From assembly GCA_015061185.1 (NCBI GenBank), contig SUWZ01000034.1, positions 1-38,923 on the forward strand: a stretch of DNA of 38,923 nt. Direction: 5' to 3'. Position numbers and translations under genes: made by a program. Source of the DNA: Bacteroidales bacterium. Lineage in GTDB: Bacteria; Bacteroidota; Bacteroidia; Bacteroidales; Paludibacteraceae. Below the pieces are notes generated by a model that saw only the letters and a list, made by a program, of their open reading frames with translations, searched no databases and was not told where the DNA came from. Below, in pieces: positions 28,988 through 38,923 of this stretch (within the stretch, counting starts at the first letter, position 1; every line of letters starts with the position of its first letter).

Positions 28988-31183
28988 ATGAGTATGGAAG
29001 ATACACTCACATATATAGCTCATTCTGTAAATTCCAATGGCATTTTACAGACGATGAATGAACACTGTTCAGGAGTCGGAAAGATTATGCGAGGGTTCGC
29101 TTTGGATAAGTCTTTTGCAGATTTGTATGAATTTTGTGGAATAATTCATGATATGGGTAAGTATTCGGATGATTTTCAACGATATATTGCAGGTGATAAT
29201 ATTAAGACGAAACATTCCATATATGGAGCATTATATGCATCTGAAAATAAACATATAGAGCTTTCCTTACCCGTTTTTGGCCATCATGCAGGACTTCCCA
29301 ATAGTCCAGAGATGAGATTACAATTGAAGGCTGAATTTACTTGTGAAAAGGAAAAATATAACTGTATCTGTAAAAGATGGCTCAGTGACATTGGAAACCA
29401 ATTTTGTTTACCAAACAATGAAAATTTTCTAGGCTTGTCGAATGTTCTGATGCAGGAGTTATTTGTTAGAATGTTATATAGTTCTCTAGTTGATGCAGAT
29501 AGCCTTGATACAGAAAGACATTTTGATACAGAAAAGTTCAAGACAAGGACAAGTCCTTCATTTGATGCACAATTACTTTTGAATAGATTGCAACAGACTT
29601 TAGATTCGTTTAAGGCTAATTCTGAGAATAGTGGAATAAATCAGTTACGTAATAATGTGCGTAAGTATGCAGAATCTAAAGCAAGTATGTCTCAAGGCTT
29701 TTTCTCGTTGACTCTTCCTACAGGATTAGGTAAAACTATTTGTAGTATTAATTGGGCATTGCATCATGCACAATGTCATGATAATATAAAGAGAATCATT
29801 ATAGTTTTACCTTTTATAAGTATCATAGATCAAACTGCGGAAGTCTTGAAGAATATATTTGATGATGATAACTGTTGTTATGTCCTTGAACATCATTCTA
29901 ATGTAAATTATTTAGAGAATGAAAATGAAGACAAGTATGATTCAAAATTGTTAGCTACTGAGAATTGGGATTATCCAATTATTGTCACTACGAATGTGCA
30001 GTTTTTTGAGTCTTTATTCAGCAACAAAAGATCATCTTGTCGAAAATTACATAATATTCAAGATTCTATTATCATTTTTGACGAAATACAAACATTACCT
30101 TTGGGTATAACGGAACCTACATTGACGATGTTGGAGAACTTGCAACAAGTTTGTAGATGTAGTATGCTCTTTTGTACGGCAACTCAGCCTGATTTTGAAT
30201 CAAGGGATGGCTTTAGCGGAATAAAACATATAGAGTCATTAGTAGAAAATCCTCTGTTGATATTTGAACAAACAAGACGAGTAACTTATCATCCTATTAA
30301 TGATTATAAAGAAATAGCTATATCTGAATTATCAGATATGGTTGCCAAAAATCATCAGTCTTCACTTGTTGTTTTTAACACGAAGAAGAAAGCACGATTG
30401 TTCTTTGAAGAAATGAAAGATTGTTCTCAGTATCGGTTATTTCATTTATCAACATCTATGTGCCCGGCTCATAGAAAGAAAGTTATTAAGGAAATAAGAA
30501 ATGCTTTACTTCTTGGAGAATATATTGTGGTGAGTTCTACACAGCTTATTGAAGCTGGAGTGGATATGGATTTCCCAATAGTATATAGGGAACTTGCCCC
30601 TTTGGAGTCTATCATACAATCGGCAGGTAGATGCAATAGAGAAGGAAAGATGAGAGATGAAAACGGAAGTGAGAAAAAAGGAGTCGTATATTTGTTTTCA
30701 TTGACGGAGTCAGGTCAACCAAGTAGGCAATATCGTTCTTGGTCTGAGTTTGCAAATCTTCTTTATAAAGGGAATGAAGAGAAACTATACACACACGATT
30801 TTTATAGTTACTATTATAGAGAACTTATTAGTAATTTTGCAAATACAGATAAGTTGAGTATAACAAATGATAGAAAGAAACTACTATATCAGACCGTTGC
30901 CGAAAAATATAAAATTATAGATGATAAAACTCAGTCAATCTTCATTTTCAATTATAATGAAGAAAGTTTAGAACTATATAACTGTATAAAGAATCGAGAA
31001 TTCCTTACAAGACAAGAACGTCAACTTGTATCTCAATATAGTGTTCAAGTTTATGATAAATTCTTGAAAGAGAATAAGTCTTTTGTAAATATAGAAAAAT
31101 GTAGTATTTTAGTATGGTATGGCTCATATTCTGAAGATTTTGGATTGCCTTTTATACAGGATTTCAGTACGATAATAATATAA
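28988..31183 (+). CDS. cas3: Cas3 HD nuclease-helicase, type I-C
   Basis: Cas3 is recruited by the target-bound surveillance complex and unwinds and degrades the DNA. The 731 residues carry an N-terminal HD domain with H54-D55 in IIHDMGKYSDDF, H76, H99-H100 in FGHHAGLP and D169. A superfamily 2 helicase follows, with Walker A LPTGLGKT (243-250), the DEAD-type box DEIQ (365-368), CTATQP, and SAGRCNREG as motif VI. All nuclease and ATPase motifs look intact. It is the first gene of the cas operon; cas5c follows after 10 nt. Confidence 0.95.
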   Translation: MSMEDTLTYIAHSVNSNGILQTMNEHCSGVGKIMRGFALDKSFADLYEFCGIIHDMGKYSDDFQRYIAGDNIKTKHSIYGALYASENKHIELSLPVFGHHAGLPNSPEMRLQLKAEFTCEKEKYNCICKRWLSDIGNQFCLPNNENFLGLSNVLMQELFVRMLYSSLVDADSLDTERHFDTEKFKTRTSPSFDAQLLLNRLQQTLDSFKANSENSGINQLRNNVRKYAESKASMSQGFFSLTLPTGLGKTICSINWALHHAQCHDNIKRIIIVLPFISIIDQTAEVLKNIFDDDNCCYVLEHHSNVNYLENENEDKYDSKLLATENWDYPIIVTTNVQFFESLFSNKRSSCRKLHNIQDSIIIFDEIQTLPLGITEPTLTMLENLQQVCRCSMLFCTATQPDFESRDGFSGIKHIESLVENPLLIFEQTRRVTYHPINDYKEIAISELSDMVAKNHQSSLVVFNTKKKARLFFEEMKDCSQYRLFHLSTSMCPAHRKKVIKEIRNALLLGEYIVVSSTQLIEAGVDMDFPIVYRELAPLESIIQSAGRCNREGKMRDENGSEKKGVVYLFSLTESGQPSRQYRSWSEFANLLYKGNEEKLYTHDFYSYYYRELISNFANTDKLSITNDRKKLLYQTVAEKYKIIDDKTQSIFIFNYNEESLELYNCIKNREFLTRQERQLVSQYSVQVYDKFLKENKSFVNIEKCSILVWYGSYSEDFGLPFIQDFSTIII

Positions 31184-31193
31184 ATGATATACT

Positions 31194-31955
31194 ATGCTTG
31201 ATAAAGAAACAGTTAGATTGAAGGTTACGGGAGACTTTGCATGTTTTACCCGTCCCGATTTGAAAGTGGAACGTATGAGTTATCCGTGCATGACTCCATC
31301 TGCAGCACGCGGCATCTTGGAAGCAATTCTTTGGAAAAAAGAATTTCAATGGGTCATTAAAAGAATTATAGTTCTCAAACCCATCAAGTTTGCTTCAATT
31401 AAAAGAAATGAGATAACGAAAAAACAAAGTTATAAAAGTGGACCTATTGATATAACAAAGGAAAATAATCAAGGGAAGCCAGAAAATCGTGTTCAACGAA
31501 ATAGTATAGTGCTAAAAGATGTTGGCTATATTATTGAGGCATCGATTTATGTCGAAGAAGATGTTATAAGAAAGACGAAAAATAGTGAACATCCTATTAC
31601 CGTAAAGAAATATCGTGAAATGTTTGAACGTCGAGTGAAAAAGGGACAATGTTGGCATCAACCATGTTTGGGAACAAGAGAATTTGTTGCGGATTTTTCT
31701 ATTCCTGAAGAACACGATAAACCATTGGATATAACATATCCAATAGGTAGTATGCTTTACGATATGTATTATGATGAAAAAGGGAACGCAACACCTTTGT
31801 TTTTCTATGATGTGGCTATTGTAGATGGTGTTCTTGATTGTCCTGAAGATAAGTCCATGAAAATGTTGTCGTCTTCTCATCTTCAGCCTAAACAATCAGA
31901 TGAATATAATCGTGTTGTTTACGAACATTATAAAGAAGAGGAGGCTGATATATGA
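31194..31955 (+). CDS. cas5c: Cas5c (Cas5d), crRNA-processing subunit of type I-C
   Basis: In type I-C, Cas5 replaces Cas6. It cuts the repeat RNA and stays on the 5' handle of the crRNA in the complex. The 253 residues begin with the Cas5 RRM fold (VRLKVTGDFACFTRPDLKVE), then PCMTPSAARGILEAILWKKE. Later they show the type I-C signature KGQCWHQPCLGTREF (about 150-164). By eye alignment, the Tyr and His reported as catalytic in the Bacillus halodurans enzyme are Leu46 and Lys139 here, while Lys138 is kept. The stop overlaps cas8c by 4 nt. Confidence 0.93.
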   Translation: MLDKETVRLKVTGDFACFTRPDLKVERMSYPCMTPSAARGILEAILWKKEFQWVIKRIIVLKPIKFASIKRNEITKKQSYKSGPIDITKENNQGKPENRVQRNSIVLKDVGYIIEASIYVEEDVIRKTKNSEHPITVKKYREMFERRVKKGQCWHQPCLGTREFVADFSIPEEHDKPLDITYPIGSMLYDMYYDEKGNATPLFFYDVAIVDGVLDCPEDKSMKMLSSSHLQPKQSDEYNRVVYEHYKEEEADI

Positions 31956-33637
31956 TACAGGAATTGGTAGAGTTTGGGAAACGAGTGACTAAAGGTAAAA
32001 GTCGTGCTTTGAAAGAAGATACTTATTCTATTATTCTTGTAATAGATGAATTGGGCGTATTCCAAAAATTTATAATTGGAGAGAAACAGGATATCTTAGC
32101 AGAAGCCATTACTGCTAAGAAAGGAAAATCACGATTCCTACTTGATAAATGTGAAGAAGTTCTTGGTATAGGAGAAGGTGATGTTAATAAGAAACATGAA
32201 CTTTTTTTGAAGAAACTTGAATGTTATAAGACTTTGCCTGTCCTTGAGCCAATAATCAAATTCTATGATGAAAATAATATTAACGGTCTTAGAAAAGCCA
32301 AAGCTGATTTTGAAAAATTGGACAGGAATGACCAAAAAGGTAATATCACTTTTATGGTGGGTGCTTCGCTTTTATTGAAAACTGAAGAAGTTAAAAATTC
32401 CATTATCAAGCGCTTTGAGGAAGAGGAACAGAAACTGGTCAATGGAAGGATATGCTCCATTTGTGGTTCTTCTCAAATACCAGTTTTAGACGAACCTCAC
32501 GGATTAGTGAAGATGCCTAAAGGACAATCGGCAGGTAGTGCTTTAGTATCATATAACGATAAAGCCTTTGAATCATATGGTTTAATAGGAAATCTTAATT
32601 CTTCTATATGTAGAGAGTGTGCAAGAAATTACATTGATGGATTAAGTTTTTTATTGTCAGATGGTCATAAAGTAGAAGATGATAACAAGAAAAAAACTCA
32701 CTTCCAATATAACCATAGGTTTAAGATAAGCGATAATACAGTCGCTCTATTTTGGACTAAGCAGGAGACTGAAGAGATTAATCCTTTTATGATAGATGAT
32801 GAGCCCAGTGAGTCAGAGGTGAAAAGTCTATTTGAATCTGTGCGGAGCGGAGACAATAGAATGGTATCTGTTGCAGAAGTCAATATGTTTTATAGTTGTA
32901 CGGTTTCTTCTGCCGCAGCTCGAATTGCTGTTAGAGATTGGACTGCAATTAGTTTGGAAGACTATAAGTGTAACCTTGCGGATTGGTTCCAAGATATAGA
33001 AATACAGGACTACAATGGTAAACTAATATATAGCCCTTTGAAATTGCTTATTAGTGCGTTTCAACGTCGTAAGGAACAAGGAGAGAGAGCTAAATCAGAC
33101 TTGGTTTCCAAGGCAAGAATCGGTTCAATACTTTGGAATGCTGCGATAAAAGGTCGGTCATATAAGATTCCTCTTGAGATACTGCAATCAGTATTGAATA
33201 GAATATATGTTGAAGGAGAGTTTTCTCCATATAGAGCCGCTATAATTAAATTGATTATTAATCGTAATACAAATAAAAATATGAAATCACATTTAGATGA
33301 GTCTAATAGAAGTATTGCCTATATGTGTGGCAGATTGTTTGCCGTCATTGAGTCAATGCAGAGGAAGGCTATAGGTAACGTTAATAGTGGTGTCAAAGAA
33401 CGTTTTTTTGCTGCAGCCGCGTCCCAACCGGCATATGTTTTGGGGACATTATTGACAAAGAATGTGCCAATCTACCAACATAAAATAGGTGGATACTTAG
33501 CAAAAGAACTGAATGATATTGCAGGATTTATTAGTGAGAGAGGAAGTTTCCCTCAACGTTTTTCCCTTATTGAACAAGGCGATTTTGCGTTAGGTTATTA
33601 TTTCCAACGGACTCATAAAGTTGACAACGAAAAATAA
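31952..33637 (+). CDS. cas8c: Cas8c (Csd1), large subunit of the type I-C complex
   Basis: Cas8c recognises the PAM and helps open target DNA. In I-C, an internal start is known in some systems to give a separate small subunit (Cas11c); whether that occurs here is not visible. The 561 residues have four cysteines (C168, C171, C220, C223: ICSICG ... SICREC) that probably bind zinc. The C-terminal helical region is rich in Arg and Lys, as in Csd1. It is coupled to cas5c by an ATGA overlap and followed after 30 nt by cas7c. Confidence 0.92.
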   Translation: MIQELVEFGKRVTKGKSRALKEDTYSIILVIDELGVFQKFIIGEKQDILAEAITAKKGKSRFLLDKCEEVLGIGEGDVNKKHELFLKKLECYKTLPVLEPIIKFYDENNINGLRKAKADFEKLDRNDQKGNITFMVGASLLLKTEEVKNSIIKRFEEEEQKLVNGRICSICGSSQIPVLDEPHGLVKMPKGQSAGSALVSYNDKAFESYGLIGNLNSSICRECARNYIDGLSFLLSDGHKVEDDNKKKTHFQYNHRFKISDNTVALFWTKQETEEINPFMIDDEPSESEVKSLFESVRSGDNRMVSVAEVNMFYSCTVSSAAARIAVRDWTAISLEDYKCNLADWFQDIEIQDYNGKLIYSPLKLLISAFQRRKEQGERAKSDLVSKARIGSILWNAAIKGRSYKIPLEILQSVLNRIYVEGEFSPYRAAIIKLIINRNTNKNMKSHLDESNRSIAYMCGRLFAVIESMQRKAIGNVNSGVKERFFAAAASQPAYVLGTLLTKNVPIYQHKIGGYLAKELNDIAGFISERGSFPQRFSLIEQGDFALGYYFQRTHKVDNEK

Positions 33638-33667
33638 GAAGGAACAAAAACTTAAATAATAGTGAAT

Positions 33668-34585
33668 ATGGATAATTACATTCAAAATCGTTATGATTTC
33701 GTTTTCCTTTACGATGTGAAGGATGGAAATCCAAATGGAGACCCTGATTTTGATAATCAGCCAAGAATTGATTTCGAAACAAGAGAAGGCCTTGTATCAG
33801 ACGTTTGTATTAAGCGTAAGGTTCGCAATTACGTTCAACTTAAAGTTGAAGCAGGAGAACTTTCTTCGGATAAATATGATATTTTTATTCGACAAGGAAA
33901 TGTTCTAAACAACATTATCAGCGAGGAGAGTGAAAAAGCTAGTGGCGATGAAAAGAAAGGTCGCATAGCTATGTGTGACAAGTATTTTGATGTTCGTACA
34001 TTTGGTGCTGTATTAAGTACTGGTAGTGAAGAAGCTAAGGAAGAGGACAATTCTGAGGTAACAAGTTCTAAAGAAAAAAAAGAGAAAGGAAAAAAGAAAA
34101 GAGCACTTGGAGTTGTTCGTGGTCCGGTGCAATTCGTGTTTTCGAGAAGTATAGATCCAATTGATAGTAGAACACATTCTCTTACAAGATGTTGCGTAAC
34201 CAAAGAAGCAGACAGGGATAAAGAAAGTACTTTTGGAAATAAATCAACTGTGAGTTATGGACTCTATCGTATGCATGGATATATTTCGGCATTTGATGGT
34301 GAGAAATGTCATTTTACAGAAGATGATTTGAACCTCTTGTGGGAAGCTCTTAGAAATGCGTTTGAACATGATCATTCGGCAGCTCGTGGAGAAATGAATG
34401 CTCGTGCCTTAATCGTGTTTAGACATGAATCTAAATTAGGGAATGCTCGTTCCTCACAATTGTTTGACCTTGTCAAGGTTAATAAACGAACGGAGGTAGA
34501 ATATCCTCGTCAATTTGAAGATTATGAAATCAGCATCGATGAAAACAACCTTCCAACAGGTGTGGTAATTGAAAAACATATTTGA
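33668..34585 (+). CDS. cas7c: Cas7c (Csd2), backbone subunit of the type I-C complex
   Basis: Several Cas7 copies line the crRNA in the complex. The 305-residue protein has the Cas7 start YDFVFLYDVKDGNPNGDPD, VRTFGAVLSTG, VRGPVQFVFSRSIDPI and the later SRTHSLTR-like segment (about residue 160). Residues 120-146 are a Lys/Glu/Ser-rich insert between FGAVLSTG and VRGPVQ that I would not expect in a typical Csd2. The ATG at 33668 is chosen; a GTG at 33662 would add two residues. The next gene (RhuM) starts 6 nt after the stop. Confidence 0.92.
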   Translation: MDNYIQNRYDFVFLYDVKDGNPNGDPDFDNQPRIDFETREGLVSDVCIKRKVRNYVQLKVEAGELSSDKYDIFIRQGNVLNNIISEESEKASGDEKKGRIAMCDKYFDVRTFGAVLSTGSEEAKEEDNSEVTSSKEKKEKGKKKRALGVVRGPVQFVFSRSIDPIDSRTHSLTRCCVTKEADRDKESTFGNKSTVSYGLYRMHGYISAFDGEKCHFTEDDLNLLWEALRNAFEHDHSAARGEMNARALIVFRHESKLGNARSSQLFDLVKVNKRTEVEYPRQFEDYEISIDENNLPTGVVIEKHI

Positions 34586-34591
34586 TTCCTC

Positions 34592-35626
34592 ATGCCAAAA
34601 CGTCGAGAAATAAGAAACAGTACTGCCGAGTTCCTTATTTTCCAATTGGAGAATAAGGATCAAGGTGTTGAGGTGTACTACAAGGATGAAAATGTGTGGG
34701 CAACTCAAAAGGCTATGGCTACGCTGTTTGATTGTGATAGAAGTGTTATTACCAAGCATATTGGGAATATATTTGCTTCTAATGAACTGAAGGAAGAAAC
34801 AGTATGTGCAAAATTTGCACATACTGCCACTGATGGTAAAAACTATAACACTCAATTTTATAGTCTTGATGCTATTATCGCAGTTGGCTATCGTGTTAAC
34901 AGCATCCGTGCTACACAATTCCGTCAATGGGCTACAAATGTTCTTCGCCAATATGCTATCCGGGGCTACGTGGTTGACCGCAAGCGTATGGAGAATGGTT
35001 CTTTCCTTGGGGAGGATTATTTTGAGCATCTGCTAGCTGAAATACGAGAGATTCGTCTTTCGGAACGTCGCTTCTATCAGAAATTGACGGATGTATATGC
35101 TACCAGTATGGACTATAATAAGGATGCTCCCACTACACGACTGTTTTTTCAGCGAATACAGAACAAAATGCATTATGCAGTACACGGGCGTACAGCTGCT
35201 GAACTGATAAAGGAAAGAGCCGATGCAAAAAAAGAACACATGGGACTGACTACTTGGGAGAATGCTCCAGATGGTAAAATTGTCAAGACAGATGTGTCGA
35301 TAGCGAAGAACTATCTTAAAGAGATGGAACTGGAGGACATGGGACGCATTGTGACGGCAGTCTTGGAGTTTGCTGAAAGTCGTGCTAAGCGCCATATTCC
35401 GATGACAATGGAAGACTGGGCAAAGCGTATTGATGCTTATCTTTCAAGTGACGAGCGTCCTATATTGACTGATGCTGGAAGTGTGAGTCATGAGGAAGCT
35501 GTGTTGCATGCTGAGACAGAGTTTGAAAAATATCGTATTGTGCAAGATAGATTATTCCAAAGTGATTTTGATAGATACTTGGTGGCTCTGCCATTTGAAA
35601 ATGACGATTCAATTAAAACAGAATAG
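34592..35626 (+). CDS. RhuM-family protein embedded in the cas operon
   Basis: The 344-residue protein belongs to the Virulence_RhuM family (COG3943). An N-terminal DNA-binding-like part has VWATQKAMATLFDCDRSVIT, YSLDAIIAVGYRVNSIRATQ and FRQWATNVLRQY, the pattern also seen at the start of phage antirepressor-like and Fic-associated proteins. The C-terminal half contains RLFFQRIQNKMHYAVHGRTA and AESRAKRHIPMTMEDW, both typical of full-length RhuM. The name comes from a Salmonella pathogenicity-island gene; the biochemical role is unknown. From memory, such genes are also found inside type I restriction-modification loci. It lies 6 nt after cas7c and 3 nt before cas4, so co-expression is likely. 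It seems to use more CGT and GCT codons than its neighbours, suggesting a separate origin. Confidence 0.88.
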   Translation: MPKRREIRNSTAEFLIFQLENKDQGVEVYYKDENVWATQKAMATLFDCDRSVITKHIGNIFASNELKEETVCAKFAHTATDGKNYNTQFYSLDAIIAVGYRVNSIRATQFRQWATNVLRQYAIRGYVVDRKRMENGSFLGEDYFEHLLAEIREIRLSERRFYQKLTDVYATSMDYNKDAPTTRLFFQRIQNKMHYAVHGRTAAELIKERADAKKEHMGLTTWENAPDGKIVKTDVSIAKNYLKEMELEDMGRIVTAVLEFAESRAKRHIPMTMEDWAKRIDAYLSSDERPILTDAGSVSHEEAVLHAETEFEKYRIVQDRLFQSDFDRYLVALPFENDDSIKTE

Positions 35627-35629
35627 CAC

Positions 35630-36304
35630 ATGATATATGCTGAAGATGATATGCTCATGTTGTCGGGGATGCAACACTTTATGTTTTGTCCCCGACAATG
35701 GGCGTTGATACACATAGAGCAATTGTGGGAAGAAAACAAACTCACAGTTGAAGGACAACTTTTGCACACTAATGTTGACAATCCGTCATATAGGCAAAAA
35801 AATGGTGATACTATCACACTAAGGTCAGTTGCAATAGCATCAAAGAAGTTGGGACTATATGGCTTTACTGATGCCGTGGAACTTATTCCTACTTCCGATA
35901 AGGATAAGGGAATCAAACACAATAAATATCCTGGGTTATGGAAACCTTTCCCCGTAGAATACAAAAGAGGGAAACCAAAATCGAGCATGGCTGATGAAGT
36001 ACAACTCGCAGCACAAGCCATGTGCCTTGAAGAGATGTATGACATTACTGTTGAATATGGAGCAATATTTTATGGAGAAATTAAGCATCGTTCCGTAATT
36101 CATATATCAGAAGATTTAAGGCTATTGACAATGCGTCTTGCCCAAGAGATGCATAGAATATACGAAGAAAGCATTGTTCCAAAAGCGGAAAAAAGTTCAT
36201 GTTGTGGCAAATGCTCATTAATAGATATTTGCATGCCCAAAACGAAGAAACAAAACAATATAGACACATACTTAAAGAAAAATTTATATGAGGAAATTAC
36301 TTAA
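35630..36304 (+). CDS. cas4: Cas4 exonuclease
   Basis: Cas4 is a RecB-like Fe-S nuclease that trims prespacers and helps select the PAM during acquisition. The 224 residues show the first cysteine in MFCPRQWALIHIEQLW, nuclease residues in GFTDAVE, VEYKRGK and QAMCLEEMY, and the C-terminal cysteine cluster CCGKCSLIDIC that binds the Fe-S cluster with the first Cys. All key residues look present. Its stop lies 17 nt inside the cas1 reading frame, so the two are coupled. Confidence 0.94.
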   Translation: MIYAEDDMLMLSGMQHFMFCPRQWALIHIEQLWEENKLTVEGQLLHTNVDNPSYRQKNGDTITLRSVAIASKKLGLYGFTDAVELIPTSDKDKGIKHNKYPGLWKPFPVEYKRGKPKSSMADEVQLAAQAMCLEEMYDITVEYGAIFYGEIKHRSVIHISEDLRLLTMRLAQEMHRIYEESIVPKAEKSSCCGKCSLIDICMPKTKKQNNIDTYLKKNLYEEIT

Positions 36305-37310
36305 TACTTTATATATAACAACGCCCGAAGCCTATCTGAGTAAAGATGGAGAAAACGTAGTTGTATCGGTTAATCAATCCGAAGTGTTCAGAATTCCGAT
36401 TATAAACATAGAAGCGATTGTTACATTTGGATACAAAGGGACTTCTCCAGGATTGATGAAACTCTGTGCAGACAATAGGGTTTCAATTACTTACTTATCG
36501 CCATTTGGAAAATATATTGGCAAATTTGAAGGTCCAATAAAAGGCAACGTATTACTTCGCACGAAACAGTGGGATTTGTCTAAGGATAAAGATTTCTCCT
36601 TAGGTATAAGTAAATTATTTATAGCAGGGAAGATACAAAACTATCGAAACATCCTTTGCCGTTTTATAAGAGACAATGGTCATAATGAAGATGTTGACAC
36701 AACGATAAACTATCTTAAGAGGAGCAAAGAAAGAGCTCTTAAGATTAATGATTTAGATTCGTTGAGAGGGATTGAGGGTGATGCCGCCAATCATTATTTT
36801 GAAATATTTCCAAATCTCATATTAAATCAAAAGAGTGATTTCATATTCAAAGGACGTAGTAAACGTCCGCCTAAAGATGCTGTAAATGCAATGCTTTCTT
36901 TTGTATATACTCTTATTGCATCCGATGTCACTGCCGCCCTTGAAACTGTAGGATTAGATCCTTATATGGGTTTCTTCCATACTCTGAGACCAGGCCGACC
37001 GTCACTTGCTCTCGACATGATGGAAGAGTTAAGGGCTTATCTGGGAGATAGACTAGTATTGTCTTTGATAAATAAGAGACAAATATCCATAAGGGAGTTT
37101 ATTTCGCAGGGAGAAGAGGGAATAACAATGACAGAATCAGGTAGGAAGATCCTTTTGACCGCATGGCAGAATAGGAAAAAAGAAACTATTACACATCCGT
37201 ATTTAGAAGAAAAAATCCCAATAGGGTTAATTCCTTATGCACAAGCGATGCTTTTGGCTCGTTATATCAGGAACGATTTAGATAATTATCCAGTATTTTT
37301 AATCAGTTGA
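36288..37310 (+). CDS. cas1: Cas1 integrase, type I-C
   Basis: Cas1 inserts new spacers at the leader end of the array. The 340 residues have the catalytic Glu163 in GIEGDAANHYF, His231 in YMGFFHTLRPGRPSLALDMM and the acidic residues D243/E246 that follow. This is the usual type I-C form. It overlaps cas4 by 17 nt; cas2 starts 3 nt after it. Confidence 0.95.
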   Translation: MRKLLNTLYITTPEAYLSKDGENVVVSVNQSEVFRIPIINIEAIVTFGYKGTSPGLMKLCADNRVSITYLSPFGKYIGKFEGPIKGNVLLRTKQWDLSKDKDFSLGISKLFIAGKIQNYRNILCRFIRDNGHNEDVDTTINYLKRSKERALKINDLDSLRGIEGDAANHYFEIFPNLILNQKSDFIFKGRSKRPPKDAVNAMLSFVYTLIASDVTAALETVGLDPYMGFFHTLRPGRPSLALDMMEELRAYLGDRLVLSLINKRQISIREFISQGEEGITMTESGRKILLTAWQNRKKETITHPYLEEKIPIGLIPYAQAMLLARYIRNDLDNYPVFLIS

Positions 37311-37313
37311 ACT

Positions 37314-37604
37314 ATGATGGTATTAATAACATACGATGTTGACACAATGTCCGAAACTGGCAGTAAACGACTACGCAAGGTTGCCAAAGAATGTGTAAAC
37401 CATGGACGCAGAGTACAAAATTCAGTCTTTGAATGCCTTTTAACAGAAGCACAGTTTGTAGTCTTAAAATCAAAACTTATAAATATCATAGACTCTGAAC
37501 TTGATAGTATTAGATTTTATTTTTTAGGAAATAATTGGAACAACCGAATAGAATCTATCGGAAAAATAACTACTTTTGCAATAGATTCAGAACTTATAAT
37601 ATAG
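37314..37604 (+). CDS. cas2: Cas2
   Basis: This 96-residue ferredoxin-fold protein bridges two Cas1 dimers during spacer integration. It starts MMVLITYDVDTMSETGSKRL with the first-strand Asp, and has the RVQNSVFEC segment typical of type I-C Cas2. Either of two successive ATGs (37314, 37317) may be used. It is the last gene of the operon, 168 nt before the array. Confidence 0.94.
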   Translation: MMVLITYDVDTMSETGSKRLRKVAKECVNHGRRVQNSVFECLLTEAQFVVLKSKLINIIDSELDSIRFYFLGNNWNNRIESIGKITTFAIDSELII

Positions 37605-37772: not shown

Positions 37773-38922
37773 GTCGTGTCCCTCGTGGGCACGTGGATTG
37801 AAACTTTTTAATTTTCTCGGAAAACACAAAGAAGATTTGTCGTGTCCCTCGTGGGCACGTGGATTGAAACTTATGAGCCTTTAGTTGCCAAAGCTACTGC
37901 AGCGTCGTGTCCCTCGTGGGCACGTGGATTGAAACATGCTTAATAGTTCAAGGACGTGTGGGTAGTCGGTCGTGTCCCTCGTGGGCACGTGGATTGAAAC
38001 ACCACTATACTCTGCTCGATTGCAATAATCTGTGTCGTGTCCCTCGTGGGCACGTGGATTGAAACACCTCATAAAAGAGTTGAAGCGTAAGTACCCAAGA
38101 GTCGTGTCCCTCGTGGGCACGTGGATTGAAACATACGGAGACGAATATTTCTGTGTCTGATATAAGTCGTGTCCCTCGTGGGCACGTGGATTGAAACATG
38201 GTCATAAAGATATAATTTACCCCAGCTATCTGTCGTGTCCCTCGTGGGCACGTGGATTGAAACTCGATAAACTCTTCTTTTGTGAGTTCATCAAAGGTCG
38301 TGTCCCTCGTGGGCACGTGGATTGAAACTAATACCTTTGATTTTCTACGCAAGTCGTTGAGTGTCGTGTCCCTCGTGGGCACGTGGATTGAAACATGATT
38401 ATTAATTATTAGGGTCAAAATTGTTAAAGTCGTGTCCCTCGTGGGCACGTGGATTGAAACTTGATCCAAAGTTTGATTCCCTTAGCAATTTAGTAAGTCG
38501 TGTCCCTCGTGGGCACGTGGATTGAAACTCAACTGCAATCGGGGTGATATTGCTCACTTCAGTCGTGTCCCTCGTGGGCACGTGGATTGAAACTGCAAAA
38601 ACAGGATTAAAATAATCAAAACGGGAGTCGTGTCCCTCGTGGGCACGTGGATTGAAACTGATACCGCCCTTGGTGGTTTGTATGTCGATAAGTCGTGTCC
38701 CTCGTGGGCACGTGGATTGAAACACTAGTACTCGTTTCACAGATAGCAATGTACCTGAAGTCGTGTCCCTCGTGGGCACGTGGATTGAAACATGCCCTCA
38801 ACAGCGCAAGGATTAGGTACTACAAGTCGTGTCCCTCGTGGGCACGTGGATTGAAACACTCGTACTATGCCTTTAGTTGCCCCCATGTTCGTCGTGTCCC
38901 TCGTGGGCACGTGGATTGAAAC
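37773..38922 (+). CRISPR. type I-C CRISPR array, 18 repeats and 17 spacers, continuing past the window
   Basis: The 32-nt repeat starts GTCGTGTCCC and ends GTGGATTGAAAC. All 18 copies are identical. They start at 37773, 37839, 37904, 37969, 38034, 38101, 38166, 38232, 38297, 38363, 38429, 38497, 38562, 38627, 38692, 38760, 38826 and 38891. Spacers are 33-36 nt, mostly 33-34. The repeat folds as CGTG(T)CCC/GGGCACG with a TCGT loop. Cutting at the stem base would leave the 11-nt handle TGGATTGAAAC, as expected for Cas5c processing. The repeat type and orientation agree with the adjacent cas genes. Confidence 0.98.
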
Positions 38923-38923
38923 A

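What the first reader, a model, noticed from the sequence alone, without database searches (positions are those of the whole stretch)
34586..35629. RhuM-family gene built into a type I-C cas operon
A complete RhuM-family gene lies between cas7c and cas4 with gaps of only 6 and 3 nt, on the same strand. The effector genes end before it and the adaptation genes start after it, so nothing is disrupted. Such spacing is hard to explain as a random insertion and implies co-transcription. RhuM proteins have a DNA-binding-like N-terminus, are of unknown function, and (from memory) also occur inside type I restriction-modification loci. It could be an accessory regulator, a guard or abortive-infection partner, or an adaptation cofactor of this CRISPR system. 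The function is inference; the gene order is directly visible.
Basis: partly seen in the sequence, partly recalled or inferred. Interest (0 to 1): 0.75.

Follow-up and report, generated by a model that had tools for sequence, protein, structure and literature searches.

The report
Roaming RhuM gene at CRISPR seam
A small DNA-binding-like gene of unknown function sits, again and again, at the exact joint between the two halves of a bacterial CRISPR immune operon, yet close copies also live alone elsewhere and beside apparent CRISPR ruins, so it looks more like an independent defence gene that settled there than a part of the CRISPR machine.

Summary
An intact RhuM gene (34592-35626; PF13310 E=3e-106, PADLOC PDC-S05 E=1.7e-151) lies 6 nt after cas7c and 3 nt before cas4 in a complete type I-C operon. 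It is not unique: the joint holds RhuM in 5 of 16 I-C genomes of an order-wide sample (about 0.05 copies expected) and in 10 of the 80 nearest relatives. In 12 such loci RhuM joins two effector lineages to several adaptation lineages and its tree rejects both main groupings. The joint also takes other single genes: BRO-N, Y1 transposase, DUF559. But these RhuM proteins are no clade (p-AU 4e-64); close relatives stand alone, beside I-B and II-C genes, and in three apparent CRISPR ruins beside a stub of cas4 or cas7 (two near contig ends), under equal constraint. Best reading: an autonomous, mobile, BRO-N-fold defence candidate that settles at the effector/adaptation seam and is co-expressed there, not a dedicated Cas subunit. 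RhuM in cas loci (II-C; Fic-RhuM in type I) is in print; the I-C seam pattern was not found in the searches made. Function is untested.

The parts
28988..31183 (+). cas3 (first gene of the type I-C operon)
   Evidence: PF22590 and TIGR01587
31194..31955 (+). cas5c
   Evidence: TIGR01876 E=4.1e-37, over cut-off
31952..33637 (+). cas8c/csd1
   Evidence: TIGR01863 E=4.1e-69, over cut-off
33662..34585 (+). cas7c/csd2, last effector gene (start codon GTG as listed)
   Evidence: TIGR02589 E=6.3e-86, over cut-off
34586..34591 (+). 6-nt gap from cas7c stop to rhuM start; same length in 13 of 13 close I-C loci with rhuM, sequence varies
34592..35626 (+). rhuM (Virulence_RhuM, PDC-S05), 344 aa, intact
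   Evidence: PF13310 E=3e-106; PADLOC PDLC04851 E=1.7e-151
34628..34954 (+). part of rhuM for the predicted BRO-N/KilA-N-like winged-helix domain (about residues 13-121)
   Evidence: AlphaFold2 model, pLDDT 75, pTM 0.52; Foldseek viral library, 28 matches E<=0.001
35630..36304 (+). cas4, first adaptation gene
   Evidence: TIGR00372 E=1.2e-34, over cut-off
36288..37310 (+). cas1c
   Evidence: TIGR03640 E=3e-134, over cut-off
37314..37604 (+). cas2
   Evidence: TIGR01573 E=1.4e-15, over cut-off
37773..38923 (+). CRISPR array with a 32-nt I-C-type repeat, cut by the contig end
   Evidence: sequence read

Best explanation
RhuM here is an autonomous, mobile single-gene defence candidate (PDC-S05) that settled at the seam between the interference genes (cas3-5-8-7) and the adaptation genes (cas4-1-2) of a type I-C operon and has been kept there for a long time. 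Shown: recurrent placement at this joint with a fixed 6-nt gap, intact and strongly constrained protein, near-identical protein families alone elsewhere, and intact copies beside stubs of cas genes. Inferred: it is co-transcribed with the cas genes, so it is made when the CRISPR system is made; its BRO-N-type winged helix binds DNA; its conserved helical C-terminal half carries an activity against invaders or the infected cell, as a second layer of defence that does not need Cas proteins. The seam tolerates it because insertion there breaks neither module, and modules are exchanged at that joint.
For: Of the 80 nearest relatives (70-89% identical), 10 are cas7-rhuM-cas4, 1 lies in I-B (L053), 1 in II-C (L037), 2 beside an array (L032, L057), 3 beside cas stubs; for the other 63 no CRISPR trace was found in the DNA held with an array finder and I-C Cas queries, and their neighbours are diverse. 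5 of 16 order-sample I-C genomes have it at the joint; 1 of 30 fetched phylum loci has a far RhuM (48%) there. The same 30 hold BRO-N genes there in 3, Y1 transposase in 2, DUF559 in 1. Of 16 gaps over 400 nt in 23 operons 15 are at cas7|cas4 (10 of the 23 were found through RhuM; in the other 13 it is 5 of 6). dN/dS 0.043; no difference from copies outside I-C in a matched clade. RhuM on 127 IMG/VR stretches.
Against: No experiment seen here shows any RhuM to be a defence protein; PDC-S05 is a candidate label. Only scattered neighbours of non-I-C copies match defence models (112 of 128 chosen neighbours scanned, top 25 of 188 families shown, no background control). The means of movement was not found. 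The strict gap, the clustering of the I-C label on the tree and long residence could also reflect a real partnership. Ruins have limits: L034's match (score 33) barely exceeds the best of 3000 random windows (32) and only 363 nt upstream are held; L033 lies at a contig end, so cas1 and cas2 beyond it cannot be excluded; L047 is the cleanest (35 against 28).
Confidence: 0.55

Rival explanations
1. RhuM is a dedicated CRISPR accessory, most likely in adaptation: a DNA-end-binding protein made just ahead of Cas4-Cas1-Cas2 that shields or hands over prespacer ends, or couples interference to acquisition.
For: Same strand at the effector/adaptation joint in I-C, between cas3 and cas4 in a type I-B locus (L053) and upstream of cas9 in II-C (L037). 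Best solved-structure match is DdrC (E 1.5e-3, prob 0.99), reported to prefer ssDNA, protect DNA from nucleases and anneal strands (abstract of PMC5436757). Lowest median dN/dS of the operon, though other genes have few usable pairs. Small adaptation group not rejected on the RhuM tree (p-AU 0.28).
Against: TM-scores to DdrC are 0.19-0.33. The RhuM tree rejects effector lineage A (p-AU 4e-5) and adaptation group 1 (p-AU 2e-13). Copies outside I-C are equally constrained. L046 keeps rhuM although only 26 codons of cas4 remain and cas1 and cas2 are not in the 8 kb downstream.
Confidence: 0.2
2. RhuM is a selfish or neutral passenger: the cas7c/cas4 joint is a permissive landing site for single mobile genes and RhuM gains expression there without helping the host.
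For: The joint also takes Y1 transposase, DUF559 and BRO-N genes; close RhuM copies lie at many unlike sites; T(A/G)ACC at 9 to 5 nt before the start codon is shared by 7 of 13 I-C and 4 of 86 other copies (P 8e-6 against background), as a moving unit might carry.
Against: All 13 close I-C copies are intact with dN/dS about 0.04 and near-saturated synonymous sites, which a neutral passenger would not keep (a selfish one might); the candidate-defence label and Vsr or McrB-like neighbours of some copies point to defence.
Confidence: 0.18
3. RhuM is a transcriptional regulator of the cas operon (BRO-N-type repressor or antirepressor that senses infection or DNA damage).
For: N-terminal BRO-N/KilA-N-like fold shared with phage repressor and antirepressor proteins.
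Against: The same protein sits under many different upstream sequences and does not follow effector genes in phylogeny; no operator was sought.
Confidence: 0.05

Closest known systems
RhuM-domain ORFs between cas1 and cas9 in Bacteroides fragilis type II-C loci (PMC5704556, passage read)
   Same: RhuM-family genes between cas genes in a Bacteroidales CRISPR locus
   Different: Type II-C, two ORFs between cas1 and cas9; the passage seen says nothing of recurrence, shuffling or ruins
Fic proteins with a Virulence_RhuM domain in type I cas loci (PMC3936711, section 15 read)
   Same: RhuM domain encoded in type I cas loci; link of immunity and dormancy discussed
   Different: There the RhuM domain is joined to a Fic domain; the window protein has only PF13310 by Pfam
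RhuM-like proteins in R-M/PrrC neighbourhoods, proposed toxin domain (PMC3710099, passages read)
   Same: RhuM embedded in a defence operon
   Different: R-M context; the toxin role is proposed there from association and was not tested here
PADLOC phage defence candidate PDC-S05 (and PDC-S13 for the BRO-N gene)
   Same: Window RhuM matches PDC-S05 models nearly end to end
   Different: A candidate label for a single gene; that it means stand-alone is my recall
DdrC of Deinococcus radiodurans (7qvb, 8u0g)
   Same: Best solved-structure match of the RhuM model, first five rows
   Different: No sequence-profile match, low TM-score; a DNA-damage protein described as Deinococcus-specific (abstract of PMC5436757)

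Membership tests
Type I-C CRISPR-Cas operon | cas3, cas5c, cas8c, cas7c, cas4, cas1, cas2 in order with a I-C type array | tested here: met
   All seven cas genes and the array present, rhuM inserted; the repeat type is named from recall
RhuM family (PF13310) / PDC-S05 | Match over Pfam gathering score across the domain | tested here: met
   354.8 bits against 33.7, positions 2-249 of 252; PDC-S05 E=1.7e-151
RhuM family (PF13310) / PDC-S05 | Anti-phage activity | not testable with these tools
   Needs phage challenge
Dedicated CRISPR accessory (Cas) protein | Family, or a clade of it, confined to cas loci | tested here: not met
   15 I-C rows of 111 need 11 changes, at least 4 forced by starred branches; the 13 close I-C rows as one clade rejected among 33 near rows, p-AU 4.4e-64. 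Label still clustered, 5 of 500 shuffles as low
Dedicated CRISPR accessory (Cas) protein | History congruent with a cas module | tested here: not met
   p-AU 4e-5 (effector lineage A) and 2e-13 (adaptation group 1); adaptation group 2 not rejected, p 0.28; Mantel r -0.055 to 0.194, p at least 0.14
Dedicated CRISPR accessory (Cas) protein | Lost or decayed when cas genes are lost | tested here: not met
   Intact rhuM beside stubs of cas4 or cas7 in L033, L034, L047, L034 weak and L033 at a contig end
BRO-N / KilA-N DNA-binding proteins | N-terminal fold | tested here: met
   Foldseek viral library, 28 matches E<=0.001; of those with names most are Bro-N, KilA-N, repressor-domain or antirepressor proteins; model only moderately confident, pTM 0.52
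BRO-N / KilA-N DNA-binding proteins | Sequence match to PF02498 or to the BRO-N proteins of the same joint | tested here: inconclusive
   Pfam lists only PF13310; hhalign against five BRO-N proteins E 0.005 but probability 7
Toxin-antitoxin pair | A small partner gene beside the toxin | tested here: not met
   Gaps of 6 and 3 nt to cas7c and cas4 leave no room for one on that strand
Fic-RhuM fusion toxin | Fic domain | tested here: not met
   Pfam scan of the window protein gives PF13310 only

The most novel reading that the evidence does not exclude
BRO-N-fold proteins (RhuM/PDC-S05 and BRO-N/PDC-S13) form a general 'seam' class of CRISPR-associated genes: DNA-binding proteins repeatedly recruited to the boundary between interference and adaptation in I-C and I-B (and beside cas9 in II-C), where they act on DNA ends or infected cells when CRISPR fires, while their near-constant sequence and position provide the joint at which effector and adaptation modules are exchanged.
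Probability: 0.15. Interest if true: 0.8.

Novelty: new variant of a known kind. Interest (0 to 1): 0.5.

Why it matters
RhuM is a common gene of unknown function (PDC-S05 is counted 3275 times in a set of 6530 rumen genomes, PMC13356809, passages). A recurrent home at one joint of a CRISPR operon, with copies that persist where the operon seems lost, gives a tractable way to ask what RhuM does, and it shows where type I-C modules are swapped and where other genes are added.

Tried and rejected
Unique or chance insertion: rejected. RhuM as a I-C-specific clade: rejected. RhuM inherited with the adaptation module: attractive at first (L041/L043 and L045/L054 share rhuM and cas4-1-2 but not effectors), but adaptation group 1 is rejected on the RhuM tree, while group 2 is not. 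Stronger constraint on I-C copies: overall median dN/dS 0.043 against 0.081 for other copies, but no difference in a matched clade (p 0.64), so dropped. Homologue of known structure by sequence: no meaningful hit. Cas12a for the L047 array: not found, but the control was silent, so no conclusion. A defence-model scan of neighbours gave scattered hits only, with no background control. The first ORF caller missed three rhuM genes and was replaced. Counting L033 as a full type I-B locus was considered and dropped after one search showed its Cas4 ends after 50 residues.

Rows dropped before counts: in the tree, L001-L003 as duplicates of the window, L056 and L057, and rows with a RhuM ORF under 300 aa; in the near-clade test, 33 rows were chosen by hand from the 59-row group (all 13 I-C rows and 20 others); in dN/dS, 3 of 99 rows; 16 of 128 chosen neighbours were left out of the defence-model scan, large ones for the residue limit and some RhuM-like or short ones; L046 was left out of the 12-locus comparison for lack of cas1 and cas2. 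The Mantel test used 4,999 permutations although the script's label said 9999. In the phylum sample 30 loci were fetched for the 34 genomes over the cut-off (one of the 34 is the window's), with about 1.5 kb of flank, so cas4 is not visible in some.

Full report
What is there. Window 28988-37604 holds a complete type I-C operon, cas3-cas5c-cas8c-cas7c-rhuM-cas4-cas1-cas2, all on the + strand, followed by a I-C type repeat array that runs to the contig end. The rhuM ORF is 34592-35626 (344 aa), 6 nt after the cas7c stop and 3 nt before the cas4 start. It matches PF13310 at 354.8 bits and the PADLOC candidate PDC-S05 at E=1.7e-151. Of 17 ORFs of at least 170 aa upstream of cas3, 10 were scanned with Pfam; those with a match are of housekeeping type (TamB, Omp85, DNA polymerase III delta, 4-alpha-glucanotransferase, Na/H exchanger and others) and none looks like a mobile element.

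It is recurrent. A Cas7c (TIGR02589) search of 393 genomes of the order found 16 over the family cut-off. RhuM lies between cas7 and cas4 in 5 of the 16: G000 (the window), G063, G170, G372 (77-81% identical to the window RhuM) and G159 (52%). One of the other 11, G427, shows no cas4 in the fetched stretch. In the window's own family 4 of 358 genomes are over the cut-off; of the other three, G024 lacks rhuM at the joint, G469 has no cas4 in the fetched stretch and in G698 the contig ends soon after cas7. In a phylum sample 34 of 296 are over the cut-off; of 30 loci fetched one (G892, L182) has a far RhuM (48%) at the joint. Among the 80 nearest RhuM relatives in genome contigs, 10 are cas7-rhuM-cas4 (L031, L035, L041, L043, L045, L046, L049, L054, L056, L061); I take L056 to be the same locus as G063 (equal contig length and position). 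Thirteen close I-C loci (window, these 10, G170 and G372) all have exactly 6 nt from cas7 stop to rhuM start. An I-C locus without rhuM (G024, L195) has cas7 stop, 6 nt, cas4 start.

It is more than chance. The 16 order genomes hold 23 full-length RhuM copies in about 60.3 Mb. The operons make up 0.23% of that, so 0.05 copies are expected and 5 are seen (P 2e-9). Counting the related four as one event leaves 2 events (P 0.0013). Of 16 gaps over 400 nt among 23 operons, 15 are at cas7|cas4 and 1 at cas3|cas5. Ten of these operons were found through RhuM; in the other 13 the split is 5 to 1, and of those 5 gaps three hold RhuM, one a Y1 transposase and one (L147) no identified gene.

The joint is a seam between modules. 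The 12 loci compared were chosen for having rhuM and all cas genes. Mean protein identity is 0.86 for RhuM, 0.72 Cas1, 0.67 Cas7 and Cas2, 0.66 Cas4, 0.62 Cas5, 0.50 Cas3 and 0.44 Cas8. Cas7 falls into two lineages about 54% alike; Cas4-1-2 falls into several others, combined differently. Trees agree: Cas7 lineage A is a clade (100/100) but is rejected on the Cas1 tree (p-AU 6e-5) and on the RhuM tree (4e-5); adaptation group 1 is a clade for Cas1 (100/100) but rejected for Cas7 (7e-6) and RhuM (2e-13); adaptation group 2 is a clade for Cas1, rejected for Cas7 and not rejected for RhuM (0.28). So effector, RhuM and adaptation genes have different histories in these loci.

Other single genes use the same joint. 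In the phylum sample L175 holds a BRO-N protein (PF02498; PDC-S13, E=7e-128) and L190 and L194 hold proteins like it (by sequence); L180 holds a Y1 transposase and L181 a protein like it, after cas7 with cas4 outside the fetched stretch; L179 holds a DUF559 gene. In the order sample G280 (L145) has a Y1 transposase. L182 has a short ORF before its RhuM that resembles the BRO-N proteins by eye but gives no Pfam match.

RhuM is not tied to I-C. The tree of 111 RhuM proteins does not unite the 15 I-C rows: 11 changes, at least 4 forced by starred branches; shuffles average 14.2 and 5 of 500 are as low, so the label is clustered but not a clade (a quick tree). Held as one clade among 33 near rows, the 13 close I-C rows are rejected (p-AU 4.4e-64). 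These 13 sit in a starred group of 59. Of the other 46, L053 lies in a type I-B operon between cas3 and cas4, L037 stands before a BRO-N fragment, cas9 and cas1, L032 and L057 (like flanks) lie about 0.6 kb from a 47-nt-repeat array, and L033, L034 and L047 are the stubs below. For the remaining 39 an array finder and tblastn with I-C Cas proteins found nothing; Cas proteins of other types were not sought in all of them.

RhuM beside CRISPR ruins. L033 has rhuM followed after 12 nt by 50 residues of a Cas4 (44 of 50 identical to the I-B Cas4 of L053) and then a stop; only 275 nt after rhuM are held because the contig ends, so cas1 and cas2 beyond it are not excluded, while no effector gene was found in the 8 kb before it. 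L047 has NLPAGVSIT, the Cas7 tail, directly before rhuM; score 35 against a maximum of 28 in 3000 random windows, with no cas4 found after it. L034 has VIYSDDD, the Cas4 start, directly after rhuM; score 33 against a maximum of 32, so weaker, with 363 nt held before it. L046 has effectors and rhuM but only 26 codons of cas4, and no cas1 or cas2 in the 8 kb after. rhuM is free of stops in all four.

Selection. In the 13 I-C loci RhuM has median dN/dS 0.043 (35 of 78 pairs with dS under 2) with synonymous sites near saturation (median pS 0.71), the lowest median in the operon, though the cas genes have only 1 to 14 usable pairs each. Over all rows other copies give 0.081 (280 pairs), but inside one matched clade 10 I-C and 6 other copies do not differ (p 0.64). 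The gene seems kept equally well in and out of I-C.

Structure. A first model (53 sequences) reached pLDDT 69; a second (72 sequences, 61 of them from viral contigs) reached pLDDT 75, pTM 0.52. Against solved structures no match passes E 0.001; the best five rows are all DdrC of Deinococcus (E 1.5e-3 to 0.024, TM 0.19-0.33). Against viral models 28 pass E 0.001; of those with names most are Bro-N, KilA-N, repressor-domain or antirepressor proteins. So the N-terminal part is most likely a BRO-N/KilA-N winged helix, and the helical C-terminal half is of unknown fold and activity. RhuM and the BRO-N genes at the same joint may share this N-terminal fold; the sequence comparison is inconclusive.

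How it most likely works. Shown: position, recurrence, constraint, life outside I-C, module shuffling. Inferred: co-transcription, DNA binding, and an action of the C-terminal half as a Cas-independent second line of defence. The accessory reading (adaptation) is kept at 0.2 because of the place before cas4 in both I-C and I-B and the DdrC likeness.

What is known. RhuM ORFs between cas1 and cas9 in B. fragilis II-C (PMC5704556, passage); Fic-RhuM proteins in type I cas loci (PMC3936711, section 15); RhuM proposed as a toxin domain in R-M neighbourhoods (PMC3710099, passages); PDC-S05 counted in rumen genomes (PMC13356809, passages) and treated in an archaeal survey (PMC12988326, one passage); a rhuM-like gene on a gut prophage (PMC9040807, passages). 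Searches of the held library listed no paper that I recognised as describing cas7c-rhuM-cas4, RhuM in CRISPR ruins, or module shuffling at RhuM; listed papers other than those named were not read.

Noticed in passing
L008, L011, L013, L014, L021 (same-genus genomes): Tandem RhuM pairs: a copy 67-73% like the window's followed by a second copy about 41% like it (34% over a part in L013), 20 nt apart in four of the five and overlapping by 8 nt in L021.
   Followed up: no
L094, L104, L107 (B. fragilis Q1F2 and others): RhuM lies 27 nt after a gene of one cluster whose L107 member is a Vsr endonuclease.
   Followed up: partly
L085, L088: RhuM sits between an AAA_5 gene with restriction-enzyme matches (McrB-like is my reading) and an unidentified 720-aa gene.
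   Followed up: partly
L141:4872-6446: A Schlafen AlbA_2 / RecG-C-like / HTH gene lies between cas3 and cas5 of an I-C operon that also carries rhuM.
   Followed up: partly
L047:328-3089: A 44-copy array with a Cas12a-like repeat core (GTCTACTATTGTAGAT; type recalled, not from a call) about 1 kb from an orphan rhuM; no Cas12a found, with a silent control.
   Followed up: partly
G281, G917, G961, G780, G764: Cas7c matches the family in two pieces within one long open frame (374-423 aa), as if an in-frame insertion follows about residue 85.
   Followed up: no
window 34022-34102: The window's Cas7c (307 aa as listed) is longer than 12 relatives (277-290 aa); a Lys/Glu-rich stretch in mid-protein may be the reason.
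   Followed up: no
L065, L073, L096 just after rhuM; L036, L039, L059, L079 just before it: Similar inverted repeats (GACCATTTGTCC-like) follow some solitary rhuM genes, and some share about 40 nt upstream; possible ends of a moving unit (by eye).
   Followed up: no
L198-L288: RhuM is carried by many IMG/VR contigs (127 stretches in one scan, best 80 kept); no match to the I-C type Cas proteins was found in the 91 loci held from the two scans.
   Followed up: partly
L197 (G698): A partial rhuM match (59%) near the contig end, about 2 kb upstream of cas3 of a divergent cas locus.
   Followed up: no
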